The notes below the pieces were generated by a model that had not been told where the DNA came from, made no database searches, and saw only the letters and a program-made list of their open reading frames with translations. 64,000 nt of DNA, taken from contig JADGJT010000034.1 in the NCBI GenBank assembly GCA_027604005.1, forward strand, positions 1 to 64,000. Reading direction: 5' to 3'. Positions 3,265 to 16,600 of this stretch are shown here, piece by piece. Each line of letters opens with the position of its first letter. The first letter of the stretch is position 1. Made by a program: the position numbers and the translations under genes. The DNA comes from Dinochytrium kinnereticum. Its lineage: Eukaryota > Chytridiomycota > Chytridiomycetes > Chytridiales > Chytridiaceae.

Positions 3265-5834
3265 ATGCCATCCTCTTCACCGCCTCCCTCCAACCACCCC
3301 TCTGAACACACCAGGGACGGCGGAAACGACACCCATGCCTTTTCAAACCTCGGCATGCGATATTCCGCAAGATCGACCGCATCCAACAACCACCGCACCG
3401 CACCAACGGACGACCAAACCTGGAGCATGGACACATCGTCAACTCGTAACCGAACCTCCATGCGGTCCTCTCGATCTCATGGAGGGGATGATAAGACTGA
3501 GGAAAAGGTTGTTGAGGTTTTAGCCGGGTTTGAGGGAGAGGCAGAAAAGCGACCGATCGGTCGTGCGGGTAGAACGGTCGGAATGATCCTCCTCATCTCA
3601 ACCATCCTATTCATCTACCTTCCCTTCTCGTTTATCGGTAATCTCGTCTTCCCGTTTAAACGACCGCACCATCCTCAACGCTCCTCCTCCTCAACCTCGC
3701 AATGCATCCAGCCCCCGCTGATTTTGCCGACCCCGAACGTGGCACTTGATGAAATGTATGAGAGGCTATTTGGAAAGGCGAATGAAGGGTATGCGATGGG
3801 GGTGGCGAGACGGTTGGCGGGGATGGTGAGGATTAATACGGAGGCTTTTGATGATCAAAATGGGATTGAGGTGCCTAGGAATGGTGCTGTTGCTGATCCA
3901 GATTTTGGGAGGAGGAGGGGATTTGTTACCCTAAGGGACTATGTTGGAGTGACATGGCCGAAAGTGTCGGTATTTTATATGCTATTTTTCTCCTTTGGCT
4001 TTGCTTATTTTCTTTTCTTTAGTTTGATCCCCTTCTATGTTATCCTTTATTTGTTTCTATTGGGACGAGAAATTGCCCGCCCTTGTTATATTGCTCAATA
4101 GTCTTTCTTAAATTTTTAATGGCTCATTTATCTTTTTTTACTTTTCGATGGCTGTACGTCGCGGTTAATTAGCCTCTTCTCTTTCTATAAATAGACATTC
4201 GACGCTAGATATGGAAGTTGTCAATCGATACGGGATGCTGTACCGATGGAAAGGCTCAGATTTAACCAAGGGCCCTATTCTTCTCACGGCTCATTTGGAT
4301 ACCGTGCCTGTTCCGAAGGAGACGCTATCTCAGTGGACCTACCCTCCTTTTAAGTATGTTTTTTTTTTCTCTCTTCTATCTTCATCAAAAGAATTGACGT
4401 CAAGCTTGATTTCATTTGTTAAAAGAACCCGTGTGGTTTTTTGCCTTGTTTTTGCTGACACCAGTCCTATTTCGTTTTTCTTCTCGTTTTTCGCTTTGCA
4501 GTGGGACGATCGCGGACGGATGGGTATGGGGACGTGGAGCTCATGATTGCAAAGCTCAGATGATTGAAATGTGAGTCTAAGATTAAGAAACAACAAAAAC
4601 ATCCTTTTTTTTCCCTAATTTTACGTGCTTTTCTTTTTTTAATCAAAAAATCAACAAAATCAGCCTTGAAGCCGTCGAAAACCTAATCATTGCTGGTTTT
4701 ACTCCAAAGCGAACCATTCTTATCGCCTTTGGATTTGATGAAGAGATTGGTGGGATACAGGGTGCTAAATTCCTTGCTAAGAGAATTCATGATATGGGGC
4801 ATCACAATGGTTTGGGTGGGATTCCGGTCGCTTTTCTGCTGGACGAAGGCTCGGGCATCTCAACTGCTGCTTCCATTGGTCTTAGCAATAACCGTGAAAG
4901 GGACGCCGCGTCCCCTTCTTTTGCCGCCGTGTCGACCTCCGAAAAGGGTTATATGGACGTTGAGATCACGGTCAAAGTCCCAGGTGGACATTCGTCAGCT
5001 CCACCCAAGAGAACTGGAATCGGACTGGCAGCGCTTGTCGTTAAGCAGCTTGATGACCATCCGTTTGAATTAGAAGTGGGTGAGGCGGTGCTGGAGCAGT
5101 TTGGATGTTGGACGAGGTTTGGAGCGGTTGAGGATCTGGGGCTTGTGAGGTGTGTTGGGGATGTTATTGCTGGTGTTGGAGGCGTTGAGAGAAGGAGGGA
5201 GCTTGTGGAGAGGGTCGGTGGGCTGGGAAATGGGTTTAGAGCGCTTTTGGGGACGACGCAGGCGGTGGATGTAATTAAGGGAGGTGTGAAGGTGAACAGC
5301 CTTCCAGAGTTGGTGACGATCACGGTGAATTATCGGATCGCGGCTGGATCGACGGTGGGAAGCACCGAAGCCCATCTGTTGAAAACGCTCCAGCCCCTTA
5401 CAAAGGCTCAAAACCTCACGCTTCACCAAACTCGCGCTACCGGAGAGTCGATCATCGTCAAACCGCCATCGAACCACCCGTCACAAGGGACCATCACGGT
5501 TGAAACGCTACCGGACTCGTTTGACCCGTCCCCGGTGGCTCCATCGAATTCTCGGGCCTTCCACCACGTGTCGTCGGCGATTCGACGCACCCTTGTTAAG
5601 AGCAAGGAGGAGGTTATGGTTGTGCATGCGGGTGAGGTGCTTGGAAATACTGACACAATTCACTATGGGGATGTTGTTGGGAGGGGCATGCTGATGCGAT
5701 TCTCTCCCCTGAGGGATGTGCTTGAGAATCGCATACACACGGTTGACGAGAGAGTGAGGGTGGAGGACGTAGTCAGAGGGTGTGGGTTCTTTTTTGAGCT
5801 GTTGAGGGGTGTGGATGGAGACACGGCCGTTTGA
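3265..5834 (+). CDS. CPS1: Membrane-anchored M20 peptidase, vacuolar carboxypeptidase S type
   Basis: This is a zinc exopeptidase of family M20 like yeast carboxypeptidase S, a vacuolar enzyme that releases C-terminal residues from short peptides. Exons: 3265-3965, 4195-4353, 4502-4570 and 4664-5834, giving 699 aa with phases that match at every junction. The Ser/Arg-rich cytosolic tail is followed by one membrane helix (GMILLISTILFIYLPF) near residues 109-132, as expected for a type II vacuolar protein. Metal and catalytic motifs are present in order: TAHLDTVPV (His, catalytic Asp), WGRGAHDCK (bridging Asp), FGFDEEIGG (catalytic Glu and ligand Glu) and a late NTDTIHYGD (last His). PGGHSSAPP marks the dimerisation domain. 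Length and order fit the family well. The next gene, alkaline phosphatase, is co-oriented but has its own promoter. Confidence 0.92.
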
Positions 5835-6337: not shown

Positions 6338-8902
6338 ATGAGGCTCGTCTCTGCTTCTCTCATCGTGGCCGCCGCCTCGGTGGCCTCAGTCTCCGCCGCC
6401 GTCGATCCCCTCGCCTCCGTCCCCGAGGTCGGCCAGTACGGCCGCTTCCGAGCCCTCCCCCGTGGCTCCAACCTCGCTCTCTCCCCTGTCGATGGCGCCG
6501 AGTTTGTCCCTGGCCAGCGCTTTGATATTTCCATTGAGCTGCACTCGGAGGACTTTAGCAAGGTGCCTGACCTCTCCAAGTTAGAGTTCACCGTGAACGG
6601 TGCCGATGCCGCGGCGGTTCTGAGCGCTCCCAAGCCGCATGCGTCGCTCTACAACACCACGTACTTCAAGGATGCCACCGCCCGCCATTCGAGGAGGTCG
6701 ACGACGGCGACGGTCGCCAGGTGAACAACGAATGCGTTTTTGCTTTAGTTTCCTTGTGCCCTTGATGCTTTGCCACACCCTGGCATCCTGACAATTGTAC
6801 TGACAACCCCGTCATCTATTCTGACAAACAGGCTCAACTGGAGGGACCTGGCCATCCCAAAGTCAGGCAAGTACGAGATCAGCATCAAGGCCGGCGCCGA
6901 GGAGGTCAAGGCTACATGGACCGTCAGGGGTTCATCCACCCGAAAAGCAAAGAACGTCGTCCTCTTCGTCGGCGACGGCATGGCCACCTCAATGATCTCT
7001 GCCGCTCGCTACATTGCCAAAAACACGCGCTTTGGAAAGTTTGAGTCCGGCGAGGGCTTCTTCAGCTTTGAAAAGTTCAGCTCGATCGGAAAGATCAGCA
7101 CCAACGGCATTGACTCCATCATGACCGATTCTGCAAACTCGGCCGCTGCCTTCCACAATGGTCAAAAGTCGTTTGTCAATGCCCTCAATGTCTATGGCGA
7201 CACCACCCCCAGCACCCTCGATGATACCAAGGTCGAGGTGCTTGCCTCCATGATTCGTCGAAAGCTTCCCGACATGTGCATTGGTGTCGTCACCACTGCT
7301 GCTGTTTGGGATGCCACCCCCGCCGCCGTCTTTTCTTACACTCGTTCCCGATCCGATGAGGGTGTCATTGTGGATCAGAATCTCCGTGGTTTCTCCAACG
7401 TTGTTCTCGAAGGCTCCGCCTACGTCAACAACACCAAGGAGGACATTAAGTGGTCCGCTCCTCCCGTCAAGGCGGATGTCATCTTGGGAGGAGGTGGAAG
7501 CGCTTTCTGTAGCGCAAAAGGCTGCAAGTCCTTCAACGGAGCTGATCAGTATGCTGCTTACAAGGCTAATGGATACGCTGTTGTCAACGATGGAGACGAC
7601 ATGACCAAGTACGCTGGTTCTGACCCACTTGTTGGAATCTTCCACATTGGCACCATGAGCACCTGGTACGACCGTGTCGTTGAGACCAACAACCTTGAGA
7701 GCCCCAACGCTAACCCCCTCGGCAACGGCGATAAAGCGTTAAAGCAACCTGGCTTGGAGGAGATGACCATGAAGGCTATCGAGGTCATGGAGAAGCGTTG
7801 CAAGGACGGCTACTTCCTCATGTCGGAGGCTGCCTCCATCGATAAGCAGATGCACCCAATTGACTTTGACCGTGGACTGGCGGATCTCCTTGAGCTGGAC
7901 CGTACCGTCCAAGCTGTCGTCGATCATGACACTAAGAAGGAGACCCTTATCGTCGTCACCTCCGACCACGCACAGGGTTACGATGTCTACGGAACCGTTG
8001 ACCTTGAATACATGCGCAAAGCCTCCAACGATGACTCCACTGACATCCGTGGTGCCCCCAACAATGTCACCAACCGCCCCATCAACTTCAAGACTGAAAA
8101 GCGTCAGGCTATCGGTGTTTACGATGCTGCCGGATGGCCTTCTTCCGTCGTTGACTCTAACGGTCTCCCAACCCTCTTCAAGGACCAAAGTATCAAGCTC
8201 GCCTCTGGCAAGATCGACTCTCCCACCCACGTTGAGAACTTTGAGCACAAAGATACCCCCCGGAGCCCTACCAACAGGAACCAGGGTGTCTACGCCTTCC
8301 AGGATGCCACCAACCCCGTCGTCGTCCGCAACTACTACACCGCGAACGATAAGGAGGTCGCTGCCGGCGGTATCTACATGTCTGGAAACCTTCCTCAAGG
8401 ACAGGGATCGACCGTTCACACCCTTCAGGCTGTCGATCTTTACTGTCAGGGACCAGGGTCTGAGAGGTGTGGAAAGGTTTTGGACAACACAGAGGTCTTC
8501 TTCATTATGGCGGATGCCCTCGGGTTAGGAGATACTCCCGATGATGTTCCCCCTACAAGCCAGTGCCCTGCTGCTACCGCTACCGCCACCGCCACCACCA
8601 CCATCACTGTTACCGCCACCGCGACGGTCCCTGCCGGAGGTGACTACAACGGGAAACCTATCGCCACTGCTGGTCCCGCTGCCGGTGGCGACTACAGCAA
8701 CGACGCTAAACCCGTCTCCACCGCCTCACCTGTTGACAACAGCGACTACATTAAAGCCAAGCCGATTGTTCCTTCTACCACTGCTGCTGGGTTGAAGAGC
8801 AAGGTGGACGGTGGGAACCTGTATCAGAATGCGGGTGAAAGCGTTAGGGTTAAGGGTGTTGCGTTTGTTATGGCTGTTGTGATGGCTTTTGCTGCGTTGT
8901 AA
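6338..8902 (+). CDS. Secreted or GPI-anchored alkaline phosphatase
   Basis: This phosphomonoesterase of the alkaline phosphatase superfamily releases phosphate from many esters, probably outside the cell. Two exons (6338-6720 and 6832-8902) encode 817 aa; the split codon AG|G restores the frame. Residues 1-21 form a signal peptide (MRLVSASLIVAAASVASVSA). An N-terminal beta-rich region precedes the catalytic domain, as in other fungal members. Active-site motifs: VVLFVGDGM (metal Asp, about residue 173), TDSANSAAA (Ser nucleophile, about 228), EAASIDKQMHP (metal ligands) and SDHAQGYDVYG (metal Asp and His). The C-terminus has a Thr/Ala-rich stretch and two GDY-containing repeats. It ends in a hydrophobic tail (VAFVMAVVMAFAAL), which suggests GPI anchoring. 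Whether it is cell-wall bound or vacuolar cannot be settled from sequence. Confidence 0.92.
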
Positions 8903-9741: not shown

Positions 9742-12700
9742 TCACAACCTCTTAAAATGAACCGCAACGGCCCGATCCATCTCACCGTCCTCCCCATTCA
9801 CTCCTACCTCAGCCACCATCCAAACCCCCGCGCAAGCTAGAACAAGGACAAAAACAAGTCCAACCCCAACCAACCCAACCACCAACAACACATCAGTGGA
9901 GTCAATCCTTCGTCTCTCTTCTTGAATGACCCGAATCCCCAAGCTGCTGCTTGCTCCAAGCAGAGGCACCCTATCATCCAAAGCACGCGGTCGTCGGTGC
10001 GGGGCCCGGACTTGTTTTTTCTCCTCAGCCATTTTTGGGAGAGCAGCGGGGGAGGGGGTGGGTGGTTGCTGTTTGGTGGTGGGTACGGCGATGACGGTGA
10101 CATTACCGTCGTGATTTCCCAACACGATCCAGCAGAGCGACATGCTGAGACTGGTGGGATCAGTCTGATGGGGGAAGAAGGTTGGAGGAAACGGGTGAGA
10201 GTTTTCGCTGGACAGGAGGAGAGTGGTTTTGGCGGTTGGGTTGCGGAGGGTTGGATCTAGCCAGGTTTGGAGTTGTGGTGAGGAAATGTGGGTCAGCACC
10301 CATCCTTTTTGGGGGTCGATGGAGGCCTGGTCGAGGGTTGGGAAGTTTGTTGATCGTAGCCGGAGAGCGTCTATCGTGTTTGTTTGTTTTTTGAGGGCAT
10401 ATTAGCATTTTTTTTTCTCTTGTTACCTACAGTACGCTTGCTGATACAGAAAGATAAGCTGTGTTCTTACCAGATCGTAAAGGTACAGGGTGCCTCCCAC
10501 TCTTCCAACCCCAATCCATGACCCTTTTCTCCCCATTCGCACCCTCAGCACCAATCCGAACATGTGTCCCGCCAAGAGAAAAGTCGAGGCCCCTCGGAAC
10601 ATTATTGAGAGCGTTGCAAGAGAAGAATTCAATTCCTTGAAAAAATGGAAACAGAATAAATTGGTTTGGTCAGAGGTTTAGGTGGGCTTAAAAAAAATAA
10701 ACAAAATGGTAGTGAAATGAGGGGTACCTGTCTCTGGATCCCAAATCCGAACCGTCTTGTCCTCCGACCCGCTCGCAAGGATTAGGAACCCAGCTGTTTT
10801 GGAAAACACGAGGCATGTGATAGGTGATAGATGACCATAGAGTTTTCGATTTGAGGATTGAGCTGTTTTGATTTGATTCGTGTAAGCAAATCCCTCATAT
10901 AATAATTGATGCTAACTGAGGGAAAAAAACCCCCATACCTTTCCTTAAATCCCAAACCCGAATTCCCGACCACCCCTCATTAGAAGCCGCCACCAACCGT
11001 CCATTAGCGGAAATCGCGACGTGCTTGACGGGTGTTCGGGGGTCATTAGTGGAGGTGGATGTGGCGACGGGAAAGTACTCTGATAATTAAGCTAGTTAAC
11101 AAAGGTCCCAATTGAGGAAGAAAGCACAAAAGAAATTGGGCCTAACCAAATAGATCCTTGACACCCCACACCCGAATCGTTCCATCGCGTCCAGTTGTTG
11201 CGATCTCGGAGAGGTTGGGGGAGATGGCGATGGAGTTGATGGCTGTCGGGTGCGCATGAGCGTATAGAACCTTGCGGCCTTGGGGCGTGGTTTGAGTATT
11301 GGTGATTGGTATAGTATAGTCCGCGAGAAGAACGGGGAGAAAGAAAAAAAAATAGACTTACCACTCAAAACATCATACAATATCAGTGACCCGTCTACAG
11401 CAGACGAAGCGACCATCCGCCCATCATCTGACACGCAAACACTTGAGACTGAAGATTGATGTTTCGCAAGGAACGAAGGGCCTAAAAGTTGACGAAGAAA
11501 AAGGGACTCGTCAAGCCCAGAGAGATCACCTCCAAAAAACACCAACCAAGATGATGGCACTTTCTCCAAAGATAGACGGTCCCATCTTGAGTTCCATAAA
11601 CGCTGAGATCGCCAGTGTTTGAAAGGCTTGAGACCGTGACATTTTGAGGTGGGGTCACCTGTATATCGTTGATGCAGAAGCCTAGGTCAACATAACAATA
11701 TTTGATCAGTTTTTTGAAATGCCGGGAAGGGCTGAACCTTCGAGAGAATCTAAGGTTTGAATACGGCCAGTGGAGAGGATCGCAAAAACAAAACGGCTAG
11801 ACCCTTTTTGGAAGACGATGCTTGACACAGTGGCGTCCGTTAAGAAGTGAGACGCCGGTTTGAAGGAGACTGGAATGTTTGCAGGCTTTTTAGAGAAGAT
11901 AAAGTACTAAATCGAGAAAACCCACCATCATTGCAAACAGAAAAGAAGTCTATCCTCCCAACACCATTCTCCGAAGTCGCAACTGCAATCATTTTCCCCT
12001 CATCATCAAACGCAACGCCATCAACCTGACCCTTAACAGTCCCAACCCGTTCACACCGAGAAACATCCTCCACAGATCCAACATAAACCCCTCCTGAATC
12101 CGTAACAACCCCAAGCCTCCTCCCAAACATTGCGCCAATCGCCCTCACGATCTTTCCATCTCTCTCAAGATCCCCTCCATTAACGTCCCCCAGCATCTCC
12201 CCAGTAACCGTATCACGAACCCTAACCCCTTCTCCATTCCCCCACGTGGAAACAACAAGCCCACCTCCATCCCCAAACCCAACTGACCCGTGTCCATCAG
12301 CCCCGTCCATCCAAACCGACAAAACTGCACCCCACGTCTGCGGTCTTCCAAGCGCGACGTAGACTGGCAAGCCTTTCACAAGCGCGTCCACTCCATTTAG
12401 CAAAGGTGAGAATGGAACCGCTGTTCGGTACACTTGCGACGCGCAGCGTGATATCGGGCCGTAAAAGTATCTGACCATTCTGTACGCATGGGTCAGGGAG
12501 TGAGTGGTTGGGTGATCTCGGGGAATACATGAGAGGAGGAGGGGAAGACGGTGGAGGAGAGTGGTGAGTGATCCTGTAAGTGAGAGGATTTCTATCCAGA
12601 TCAAAAGATGGCGGGTTGTGAAGGTAGTCAAATGGGGTAGGAGAGTTGGGAGGAAGTCGGCGGGTACATTGGGAAGGAGATCTAGAAGTTCCACGCAGGC

Positions 12701-13013
12701 TTGCTGGACGATTGGAGGGATATGGTCCTATTTGACGTGAAGTAGTGAGGTTTTGGCGTTTGGAGTAAGGTAATAAATAAAAGGTTACCTTCACCCTTGC
12801 GTCAAACCCCGCAATCTCTTCATGAACTTTCCCCAGCTCGTCACTTGAGAACCGACACATGTTTGAAGAAAGATTGCCGCCTTCATTTAACACCCTCAAG
12901 CAATCCAAAGCGCGAGAGGCAATGGCAACATCGCCAGGTTTGGTTGATGAATGATCTTGACCTTCCATTGCGAGAACGGGGCATGTTTTAATTCGGCTGA
13001 GGGAGGGCGGCAT
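9742..13013 (-). CDS. WD40 protein, NACHT-WD40 receptor-like but without NACHT, C-terminal TM
   Basis: Ten exons in coding order: 13013-12789, 12727-11926, 11869-11738, 11681-11547, 11481-11362, 11278-11147, 11079-10939, 10862-10728, 10635-10471 and 10370-9742. All junctions are in phase, giving 871 aa. Residues 30-190 resemble the helical arm between NACHT and WD40 domains in fungal NWD proteins: CLRVLNE, IPPIVQQAC, FTTRHLLIWIEILSLTG and YRTAVPFSP all have counterparts there. About seven degenerate WD40 units follow, the clearest being SGSEDKTVRIWDPE, TTGRDGTIRVWG and GTQDGTVYLWRK. The last exon ends in a membrane helix (VLLVVGLVGVGLVFVLVLA) near residues 820-848, with about 23 residues after it, like a tail-anchored protein. 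No P-loop NACHT exists upstream: only 632 bases separate it from the next gene. A scaffold or repurposed immune-receptor part is possible; the function is unknown. Confidence 0.82.
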
Positions 13014-13645: not shown

Positions 13646-16600
13646 TCAAAGCGGTACCGGTCTAGGCATCAACCTCCCCTCTCTATCCTCAAAATAATGC
13701 CTCTTTAAATACCTCTCCATGGCCGGCAACTGCGCAAAATGCCTCCTAGCCGTCAAATGTTTCTGCGCAATCCTTCTCACAAAATCATCTGAATAAACCC
13801 CCAAGAAATCCACCTGTCTCTCATGAGAATCCGCCTCCACCTTTGTTAGCAGCACACAATTCCACGGGCTCAACTCCATCGACCTATCCCATCTGGTGAA
13901 CACCAGATCCTCTATATTCCTCGCACCGCTGATGCAGCTCTGACGATTCCAAACCGCGTCCACCAGGTAGCGCATGTCGGATTCTTGAAGAAGTGCGAGG
14001 GCGTTGTAGTGGAGGTCATGTGGGACGCCGGTTTCGGGTCTGCGTTGGAGTTCGGCGATCCGCATGGATCGGAGGAGGGAGGAGAAGACCGTGTCGTCTT
14101 GACGGTGGTGAGCTATGTTTTCTTTGGTCGTGCAGGGTTTGCAGCGGCCGAGATGTTTCATGGTTGTGGAGAGGTAGAAGTCGGTCGAGGGTTTGTATTT
14201 TGTGCAGCTCCGGCAGTAGTAGACGGATTGGTCGCGTTTCCAGGCTTGTCCGGCTCCAGGGAACTGGTTTGATGTTGTTTTAATTGTGGATAATAATTTT
14301 TAGCAACAACGTAAGGTGGGGCTTGACTTATGTGTAGTTGCTTTACCTTTTGGTAATGCGCCGCCTCCGGGTTAAATTCTGGCGTCTGTATGAATTGCAA
14401 GAACAAGTTGCCGATACGTCGTCGAAGTCCTAATTGGAAGAAGAACAAAAGTCTTAAACACCAAACTCCATCCCACCCATAAAAATTTTAGAATAGAAGA
14501 AACCATCACCAACCATCCAAACTCTTAGCATCCCTTCCCCTACTCACAAGATCACCCTCCCGATCAATCAATTCAACAATCTCCCTGCTAAGGTTACAAT
14601 CGAATTCCTGCATAAAAGTTAATCACCAGGATCGATAACGGGGTTGAAAGTACCTTAACGGTATACTTGACATGCAGTAAAATCTGAAGCCTCTCATCAA
14701 TAGTCAGCTGGGCGAGGTTTAAGGCGTGGTAAAGATCCCGAAGCTCCCTGGCGCGAACTGTGTTAGGGGTGTCAACGAAGCAGGGGGCGCCTTTGGCTGT
14801 CGGCCATTTTTTTGGTGCCGCCATCTGTGTAAGAGGAAGGTTAGAATAACTGCTGTGTAGATGAAATACAAACAATAATAAGGTGCAAGTGAACATTATA
14901 TTTCTTAGAAAAAGAAAAAAACTATAAAGAGAAAGATCGGGTAATGGGTACAATGAGCCGTCAAAAGAGCTCATCGTCGCTCACAATAAAAACAAAATCC
15001 AAATCGCTACAAGACATTCTTATTCTTTTTAAAATCCCCCAAAAATCGCTACAAAGGCAGCATAACGAAAAGAAAAGACAAAGAAAGGGAGAAGCGCGGA
15101 CCTGCCCAAGTAAAAAAAAAACAAACCAAACCAATATAATCCAATAAAAACCAAGCTAACCCCTACTCACTTACCTGTTCAAGCAACTTCACAACCGACC
15201 TCTCCCGATTCTCATCCGCGGCGGCAAGTTTCAATCGATCGATCTTCTGAATCAACGCTGCCTCCTGGTCTAGCAGATCCGCGAGCGCCGCAAGTCGAGC
15301 GGGCTCAGAGTAGCCCGCCTCGTTTATTTTCTCCGTCTCCTGAATTCGCCAGTCTTGTTTATTTATTTGTTTTTTTGAGAGCAAAACGGGGGTTAGTCTC
15401 CAGAAGAGGCCGCAATAAAGCCATCAGGGCGGGGAAATGCCATCAAATCATCCAACTTACTCTCCAGCCCATTATAAAGAATCTCAAAATCCTTCCCACT
15501 TTTGGGATGCAACCGGCTCTCAATCTCCTTTCTCCTTCTCTTCTCGGCAAGCTCTCTTCGTCTCTTATCCTTATCAGCGAGCATTCGAACCCGGTCATCG
15601 CGCTCTCGTTTCAGTCTTCTTACCAGACGGATTGCAAAACATTTCCGGACAAAGCATTGAATTCGGGTAGCCTTTTTTTTTTTTTTTGTAGATGAATTGG
15701 CGTTGATTCGGACGGGGTAACAGAAACGTGATATTAGCTTGTACTCGATGTAATTGCTGGGAGGAGATGTGAGCTGATACTGACCATTCTAATAAGGAGG
15801 TCGCGATGTTGGTCAGAGGTAAAGTATGGTTTTGGTTGGATGGTATAATCGGGTTCAGTTGTCACATGAAGATCAGATCGACCCTAACCAAAACCAAAAG
15901 ATGTTTAATCTCACATTCAACTCAGTCGATCCACACCTCTCCAGTCAAAATCCCCACTCTTAACACCAAAAAAAAAAAAAAAAAGATGAAATCCAATCCA
16001 ACAAACCATCTGAGTAGACGCCTCCTTAATAGTCTGAGTCCTTCGATTCCTCACAAACTTTGTCTGCGTATCCCTGTGAAATTTCGGCGCAGCAGCCTAC
16101 ATATAAAACCAAACCGCCAGCAACTCTTTTAGCATTAAACCCCACCGTCATCAAAAAACGCTTGGGAATAAAAGCAGACAAGAAGGTATTACTTACAGCA
16201 GCTTTGATCTCCTGAGGAGTAGGGGTCTGAGAAGAAGCATTGAAATACTCAACCCCCGTCTGTCGGTTCCTGAAACCCCCCATGTATGTTTTGCGATACC
16301 ATTTAGAGACGTCCGATGCGAGCTGATCACGTCTCAGCGTTGCGATGGGATGAGTTGTGACTGATTGTTTTTAGTTTTTCGTGGAATGGCAAAGTGGGAG
16401 GTTTTAGAATCATTCAGAAACCGCAAGGTTGAAAGATTTGAAAGTTAAGAAAAGAGAAGAAAAAAGAAACAGCCACTCAAAACCATCAAGAGACAAGATG
16501 GAAAGAATAAAATGATCTTCACCTTCTCTAATTTCCTCAACCTCACCACCGTCACCACCTCTACTCTCCCCAAACCGATCCTCACCCTCCCCAAAGCGAT

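What the first reader, a model, noticed from the sequence alone, without database searches (positions are those of the whole stretch)
9742..13013. NACHT-less NWD-type protein ending in a membrane anchor
The arm region and WD40 repeats match the C-terminal half of fungal NACHT-WD40 (NLR-like) proteins, but the ATPase half is absent and the protein gains a C-terminal transmembrane helix with a short tail. A detached sensor half fixed in a membrane could be a decoy, a partner of a separate NACHT protein, or a repurposed scaffold. I know of no described fungal system with this layout.
Basis: partly seen in the sequence, partly recalled or inferred. Interest (0 to 1): 0.75.

Follow-up and report, generated by a model that had tools for sequence, protein, structure and literature searches.

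The report
Membrane-tethered sensor half of fungal NLR
A chytrid fungus carries a gene whose predicted protein is the sensor-side half of a NACHT-WD40 immune-receptor-like protein, without the ATPase half, and is predicted to be held in a membrane by its C-terminal tail; it likely works as a fixed scaffold rather than as a self-switching receptor.

Summary
On the minus strand, 13013-9742, a ten-exon model with GT-AG introns gives 871 residues: a short N-tail, an arm (28-191), WD40 blades, a linker, one strongly hydrophobic helix (about 823-849) and a 22-residue tail. The arm is of the fungal NACHT-WD40 (NWD) type: a profile of nine such arms finds it at E 9.9e-20, with 0 of 1000 shuffles matching. 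An IQUB gene on the same strand ends 632 bases before the ATG, and no NACHT match lies on the contig. The organism is Dinochytrium kinnereticum (100% match). Its genome also holds three NACHT-arm-WD40 genes, two with TIR matches upstream. A NACHT-less orthologue, 45% identical, exists in Chytridium lagenaria, which argues against a pseudogene. None of 17 other arm-bearing homologues has such a helix near its C-terminus. Weak points: the lagenaria model stops before the helix, there is no RNA evidence, and function is inferred. Best guess: a tail-anchored scaffold exapted from an NLR sensor; a partner or decoy of the full receptors is the main rival. New variant of a known kind.

The parts
9742..13013 (-). 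whole gene: ten coding exons (12789-13013, 11926-12727, 11738-11869, 11547-11681, 11362-11481, 11147-11278, 10939-11079, 10728-10862, 10471-10635, 9742-10370), 871 residues
   Evidence: exons 1-9 and the first part of exon 10 align with C. lagenaria P0002
12933..13013 (-). N-terminal tail, residues 1-27, conserved (16 of 27 aligned residues identical in C. lagenaria)
12380..12932 (-). NWD-type helical arm, residues 28-191 (intron 12728-12788 inside)
   Evidence: E 9.9e-20; envelope; blastp to Dikarya NWD arms, best 1.6e-11; predicted all-helical in both models, with good confidence only in the first
10081..12379 (-). WD40 region, residues 192-759, probably two propellers (inferred by analogy with HET-E)
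   Evidence: (PF00400 98.2 bits); two-propeller reading from PMC12222747 section 17
9898..10080 (-). Pro-rich and basic linker, residues 760-820
   Evidence: sequence
9811..9897 (-). predicted single membrane helix, within residues 821-849
   Evidence: Kyte-Doolittle 19-window mean 3.15; coordinates
9745..9810 (-). short C-terminal tail after the helix, residues 850-871 (5 acidic, 3 basic)
13646..14299 (-). 3' end of the upstream neighbour, an IQUB gene; leaves 632 bases before the ATG
   Evidence: PDB 8j07 chain c2, E 4.9e-33

Best explanation
The gene encodes the arm and WD40 half of a NACHT-WD40 (NWD) receptor without any NACHT ATPase, followed by a predicted C-terminal tail anchor, and the protein likely works as a fixed membrane scaffold rather than as a switchable receptor. 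Shown by the calls: NWD-type arm, WD40 blades, no NACHT, a strongly hydrophobic stretch near the C-terminus, and a NACHT-less orthologue in a second chytrid genus. Inferred: an ancestral TIR-NACHT-WD40 gene lost its effector and ATPase parts and gained a linker and helix. The helix would be inserted after translation, probably in the ER, with arm and propellers in the cytosol. Lacking the nucleotide switch, the protein would not oligomerise and fire; its propellers would hold a partner at the membrane, with the conserved arm as the second binding surface. The lack of near-identical repeats argues that it no longer takes part in fast-changing nonself recognition.
For: Arm profile match E 9.9e-20, 0 of 1000 shuffles; of 111 untrained proteins, 10 match, namely the public model of this gene, its orthologue and 8 others. 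NACHT-arm-WD40 relatives in the same genome. NACHT-less orthologue P0002 45% identical over 99% of residues 1-700, arm 94 of 163 and residues 421-625 109 of 205 identical, which argues for kept function. Hydropathy 3.15; 0 of 17 other arm-bearing proteins and 0 of 3 own-genome WD40 ends tested have such a helix in their last 150 residues. Basic residues (ERRR, 814-817) before the helix and a net acidic tail suit a cytosolic N-side (rule recalled). Internal repeat identity is at the shuffled level: best ungapped 40-residue window 0.28 against 0.23-0.33 in 20 shuffles, while three own-genome NWDs reach 0.42-0.70 and three Dikarya NWDs 0.70-0.85.
Against: No partner, localisation or expression evidence. 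The orthologue's annotated protein stops near residue 744, so conservation of the helix is untested, and a search with residues 613-871 found no other protein with this end (it also missed P0002, so it is insensitive). Alternative splicing could remove the helix: of 24 candidate GT-AG pairs in exon 10, 7 cut into the helix and 8 lie upstream and would shift the frame. Residues 191-420 are only 34% identical between the two species, which would also fit a changing recognition surface. The arm is kept although the NACHT it normally adjoins is gone, which fits a trans partner at least as well. The ungapped repeat test understates similarity if repeats differ in length.
Confidence: 0.45

Rival explanations
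1. Split-receptor reading: the membrane-fixed sensor half acts in trans with the full TIR-NACHT-WD40 receptors of the same genome, as a decoy, a bait or a brake, its arm docking where a receptor's own arm would.
For: Three own-genome NACHT proteins with the same arm; nearest arm in the tree is C16, support 86/87; the arm is well conserved, 94 of 163 residues identical between species; two of the receptors have TIR matches upstream.
Against: No genetic linkage: the receptors lie on contigs C16, C28 and C434, this gene on C34. Long branches meet in the tree. No contact evidence. Its repeats show none of the homogenisation seen in recognition NLRs.
Confidence: 0.3
2. The helix is not part of the main product: exon 10 is spliced or ended differently and the protein is a soluble NACHT-less NWD remnant.
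For: The C. lagenaria model ends before the helix; the public model of this gene ends inside intron 9; candidate GT-AG pairs exist.
Against: The frame stays open for its last 116 codons (756-871) and its codon score there is the best of the four readings tested (0.211 against -0.072, 0.013, 0.09), though the same test ranks the true frame low on the arm and on 626-755; the helix is far above background hydropathy. Both public models end before the last blade is complete, so they look like annotation errors (inference).
Confidence: 0.15
3. Decaying pseudogene of an NWD receptor.
For: Degenerate repeats and missing domains.
Against: All ten exons are open with GT-AG splice signals and an orthologue with a matching N-terminal stretch and 45% identity exists in another genus.
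Confidence: 0.05

Closest known systems
Fungal NACHT-WD40 receptors (NWD family: HET-E, HET-D, NWD2 of Podospora anserina; basidiomycete NWDs)
   Same: Arm between the ATPase and the propellers (against nine Dikarya NWDs; HET-E itself was not compared), WD40 region probably of two propellers as modelled for HET-E (PMC12222747, section 17 read)
   Different: No NACHT, no N-terminal effector, no near-identical repeats, extra C-terminal membrane helix
TIR-NACHT-arm-WD40 genes of the same genome (C16, C28)
   Same: Same arm; C16 is the nearest arm in the tree
   Different: They have TIR upstream (joined by position, not by a splice model) and NACHT; no C-terminal helix in the ends examined (the last exon of C16 is not resolved)
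Apaf-1
   Same: Arm plus WD40 propellers as the regulatory half of a STAND ATPase (recalled); among PDB sequence and fold matches
   Different: Apaf-1 has CARD and NB-ARC and is soluble (recalled); its sequence match covers WD40 residues only
Sec12 / PREB
   Same: Cytosolic propeller with a C-terminal membrane helix in the ER (recalled; only a search listing seen)
   Different: No arm, one propeller, GEF for Sar1 (recalled); no homology tested

Membership tests
NWD / fungal NLR (STAND receptor) | NACHT (NPHP3_N or NACHT) ATPase | tested here: not met
   27 residues before the arm; none of 30 matches at E <= 1 on contig C34; IQUB gene ends at 13646
NWD / fungal NLR (STAND receptor) | NWD-type arm between ATPase and repeats | tested here: met
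   E 9.9e-20, residues 28-191
NWD / fungal NLR (STAND receptor) | C-terminal WD40 repeats | tested here: met
   PF00400 98.2 bits
NWD / fungal NLR (STAND receptor) | N-terminal effector domain (HET, TIR, HeLo and others) | tested here: not met
   only a 27-residue tail precedes the arm
Recognition NLR with high internal repeat conservation | WD40 repeats over about 80% identical to each other (said of HNWD genes in PMC12222747) | tested here: not met
   best internal ungapped 40-residue identity 0.28, shuffled 0.23-0.33
Tail-anchored membrane protein | single membrane helix close to the C-terminus, no other helix | tested here: met
   helix about 823-849, 22 residues after it; best other window 1.64; by hydropathy only
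Tail-anchored membrane protein | post-translational insertion and membrane location | not testable with these tools
   needs a tagged protein
NWD C-terminal end motif (GW...W.P..R) | profile match of the C-terminus to NWD ends | tested here: inconclusive
   hmmsearch E 2.7, no better than shuffles; hhalign E 0.022, probability 2%

The most novel reading that the evidence does not exclude
A split NLR: a stand-alone, membrane-tethered sensor half that works in trans with the TIR-NACHT-WD40 receptors of a zoosporic fungus, setting where and when they fire.
Probability: 0.25. Interest if true: 0.82.

Novelty: new variant of a known kind. Interest (0 to 1): 0.5.

Why it matters
The fungal NLR surveys I saw look for the nucleotide-binding domain (PMC4986451, PMC12258605, passages), so a sensor half that lives on without it would be invisible to them. 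Dyrka et al. 2014 reported no NLR hits in chytrids and a 2025 survey counted as few as one NLR in species of Chytridiomycota, while a 2022 paper says that TIR was already reported in NLRs of Chytridiomycota (PMC9815663, passage). This genome holds three NACHT genes with the NWD arm, two of them with TIR matches upstream. A conserved NACHT-less relative beside them makes a direct test possible of whether sensor halves can be reused or act in trans in an early fungal lineage.

Tried and rejected
NB-ARC in the own genome: no match at E <= 0.001. Conserved NWD end motif: visible by eye (GWV...WLDP..R) but not significant, so not claimed. Fold search with the predicted orthologue model (mean pLDDT 54.6): matches are generic propellers and say nothing about the arm, which was not searched by itself. 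A second model, of the public fragment of this protein with two sequences, is poor (mean pLDDT 50.1, arm mostly below 50) and was not searched. Codon scoring of exon 10 favours the helix frame but the test is weak: on the arm the true frame scores below one other frame and the reverse strand, and on residues 626-755 below the reverse strand. The search with residues 613-871 found only the public model of this same gene. The search with residues 20-350 found only that model and P0002. Dikarya proteins P0009 and P0067 have less than 200 residues before the arm and looked NACHT-less, but P0067 is called partial by its source and the N-terminus of P0009 reads like the part of an NWD that follows the NACHT core (my reading by eye, not tested), so they are taken as truncated models. 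Looking for the helix in other chytrid DNA was not possible: the genome collection held is of bacteria and archaea, and no metagenome scan was allowed.

Full report
Observation. The gene lies on the minus strand, 13013 to 9742. A splice model built by hand from reading-frame and phase agreement gives ten exons, nine GT-AG introns of 56-100 nt, and 871 residues. The best protein match is HDU67_006234 of Dinochytrium kinnereticum, 100% identical, so the window is from this chytrid (Chytridiales, Chytridiaceae). The public model is cut at both ends: it starts at residue 52 and runs into intron 9 (one search compared), and so misses the last blade, the linker and the helix. The arm-side search of the own genome finds one copy of this gene.

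The arm. I built a profile from nine Dikarya NWD arms. These were picked because they matched this arm by blastp, so the choice is not fully independent. Against 1819 targets the profile finds this protein at E 9.9e-20, envelope residues 28-191. Of the 120 proteins listed (of 247 found), 9 were used for training; 10 of the other 111 match at E <= 10: the public model of this gene, its orthologue P0002 and 8 others. Every one of the 10 with a named source is fungal; P0055 has no name. 0 of 1000 shuffles match. The same profile finds own-genome NACHT proteins on C16 (E 1.1e-29), C434 (5e-23) and C28 (1.7e-22), and C59 weakly (0.0043).

No ATPase. The NACHT model of fungi (NPHP3_N) has 30 matches at E <= 1 in the genome, 8 over its cut-off and none on contig C34. 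The 632 bases between the IQUB gene (stop at 13646-13648, PDB 8j07 E 4.9e-33) and the ATG have no open frame over 97 residues on this strand. The orthologue P0002 of Chytridium lagenaria also has only 65 residues before its arm and shares the N-terminal tail (16 of 27 aligned residues identical).

The C-terminus. The last exon encodes the last blade (to about residue 759), a Pro-rich basic linker, a hydrophobic stretch of residues 823-849 with best hydropathy 3.15, and a 22-residue tail. In the last 150 residues, 0 of 17 other arm-bearing proteins and 0 of 3 own-genome WD40 ends reach 1.9; the last exon of the C16 gene is not resolved. P0002 is annotated to stop at about our residue 744, in the middle of the last blade. 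I read this as a model error, but it means conservation of the helix is not shown. Of 24 candidate GT-AG pairs in exon 10, 7 cut into the helix and 8 lie upstream and would shift the frame. A codon score favours the helix frame, but that test fails on parts whose frame is sure.

Relatives in the genome. C28 and C16 carry TIR matches over the cut-off upstream of their NACHT (joined by position, not by a splice model), and C74 a TIR end below the cut-off plus NACHT. C434 is one open frame of 1369 residues with NACHT, arm and WD40. In an arm tree this protein and P0002 group together (100/99) next to C16 (86/87), with a warning of long branches. So the likeliest origin is a TIR-NACHT-WD40 gene that lost its front half; this is inference.

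Evolution. Between the two species the arm keeps 94 of 163 aligned residues, residues 191-420 keep 73 of 215, residues 421-625 keep 109 of 205 and residues 626-760 keep 53 of 119. The repeats resemble each other no more than shuffled sequence does (best ungapped 40-residue window 0.28; 20 shuffles 0.23-0.33), unlike three own-genome NWDs (0.42-0.70) and three Dikarya NWDs (0.70-0.85). HNWD recognition genes such as het-e have repeats over 80% identical (PMC12222747, passage). This argues against an allorecognition role and for a fixed binding role; but residues 191-420 are the least conserved part, which a changing recognition surface would also give.

Structure. An AlphaFold2 model of P0002 (mean pLDDT 54.6, pTM 0.42) shows an all-helical arm at about residues 66-216, with block means of 66-92 over 71-210, followed by propeller strands; residues 657-805 are below 50. 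A second model, of the public fragment of this protein, is also helical in the arm but mostly below 50 there (mean pLDDT 50.1).

Mechanism. With sensor half and anchor but no switch, the simplest working model is a membrane scaffold whose arm and propellers face the cytosol (0.45). A partner or decoy for the full receptors is the main rival (0.30). Neither was tested beyond sequence.

Literature. Seven searches for such a layout or for chytrid NLRs (two searches returned nothing) listed no paper that describes a NACHT-less, membrane-anchored NWD; most listed papers were not opened. One for the organism listed one unrelated paper. I saw passages of PMC12258605, PMC4986451, PMC9815663 and PMC12881547, and passages and one section of PMC12222747. 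PMC9815663 states that TIR has been reported in NLRs of Chytridiomycota, so TIR-NLRs in chytrids are not new.

Noticed in passing
own genome C28:51350-52637, C16:61198-62297, C74:71248-71742, C434:14619-15128: Several NACHT genes in a chytrid; TIR matches lie upstream of NACHT on C28 and C16 and a TIR end (below cut-off) with NACHT on C74. Published surveys report none (PMC4986451) or as few as one (PMC12258605) NLR in chytrid species, though TIR-NLRs of Chytridiomycota are mentioned in PMC9815663.
   Followed up: partly
own genome C59:52686-53150 (L019): A 1349-residue open frame with NPHP3_N (65.7 bits) and no Pfam WD40 match in that frame: a candidate for a NACHT protein without WD40.
   Followed up: no
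window 9742-13013: The public gene model HDU67_006234 is truncated at both ends compared with the splice model here.
   Followed up: yes
window 13646-14299, minus: 3' part of an IQUB gene; radial-spoke role recalled, as expected of a flagellated fungus.
   Followed up: partly
window 6749-8902 and 4587-5834, plus: Alkaline phosphatase (PF00245, 1.2e-52) and an M20 peptidase (PF01546, 7e-12).
   Followed up: no
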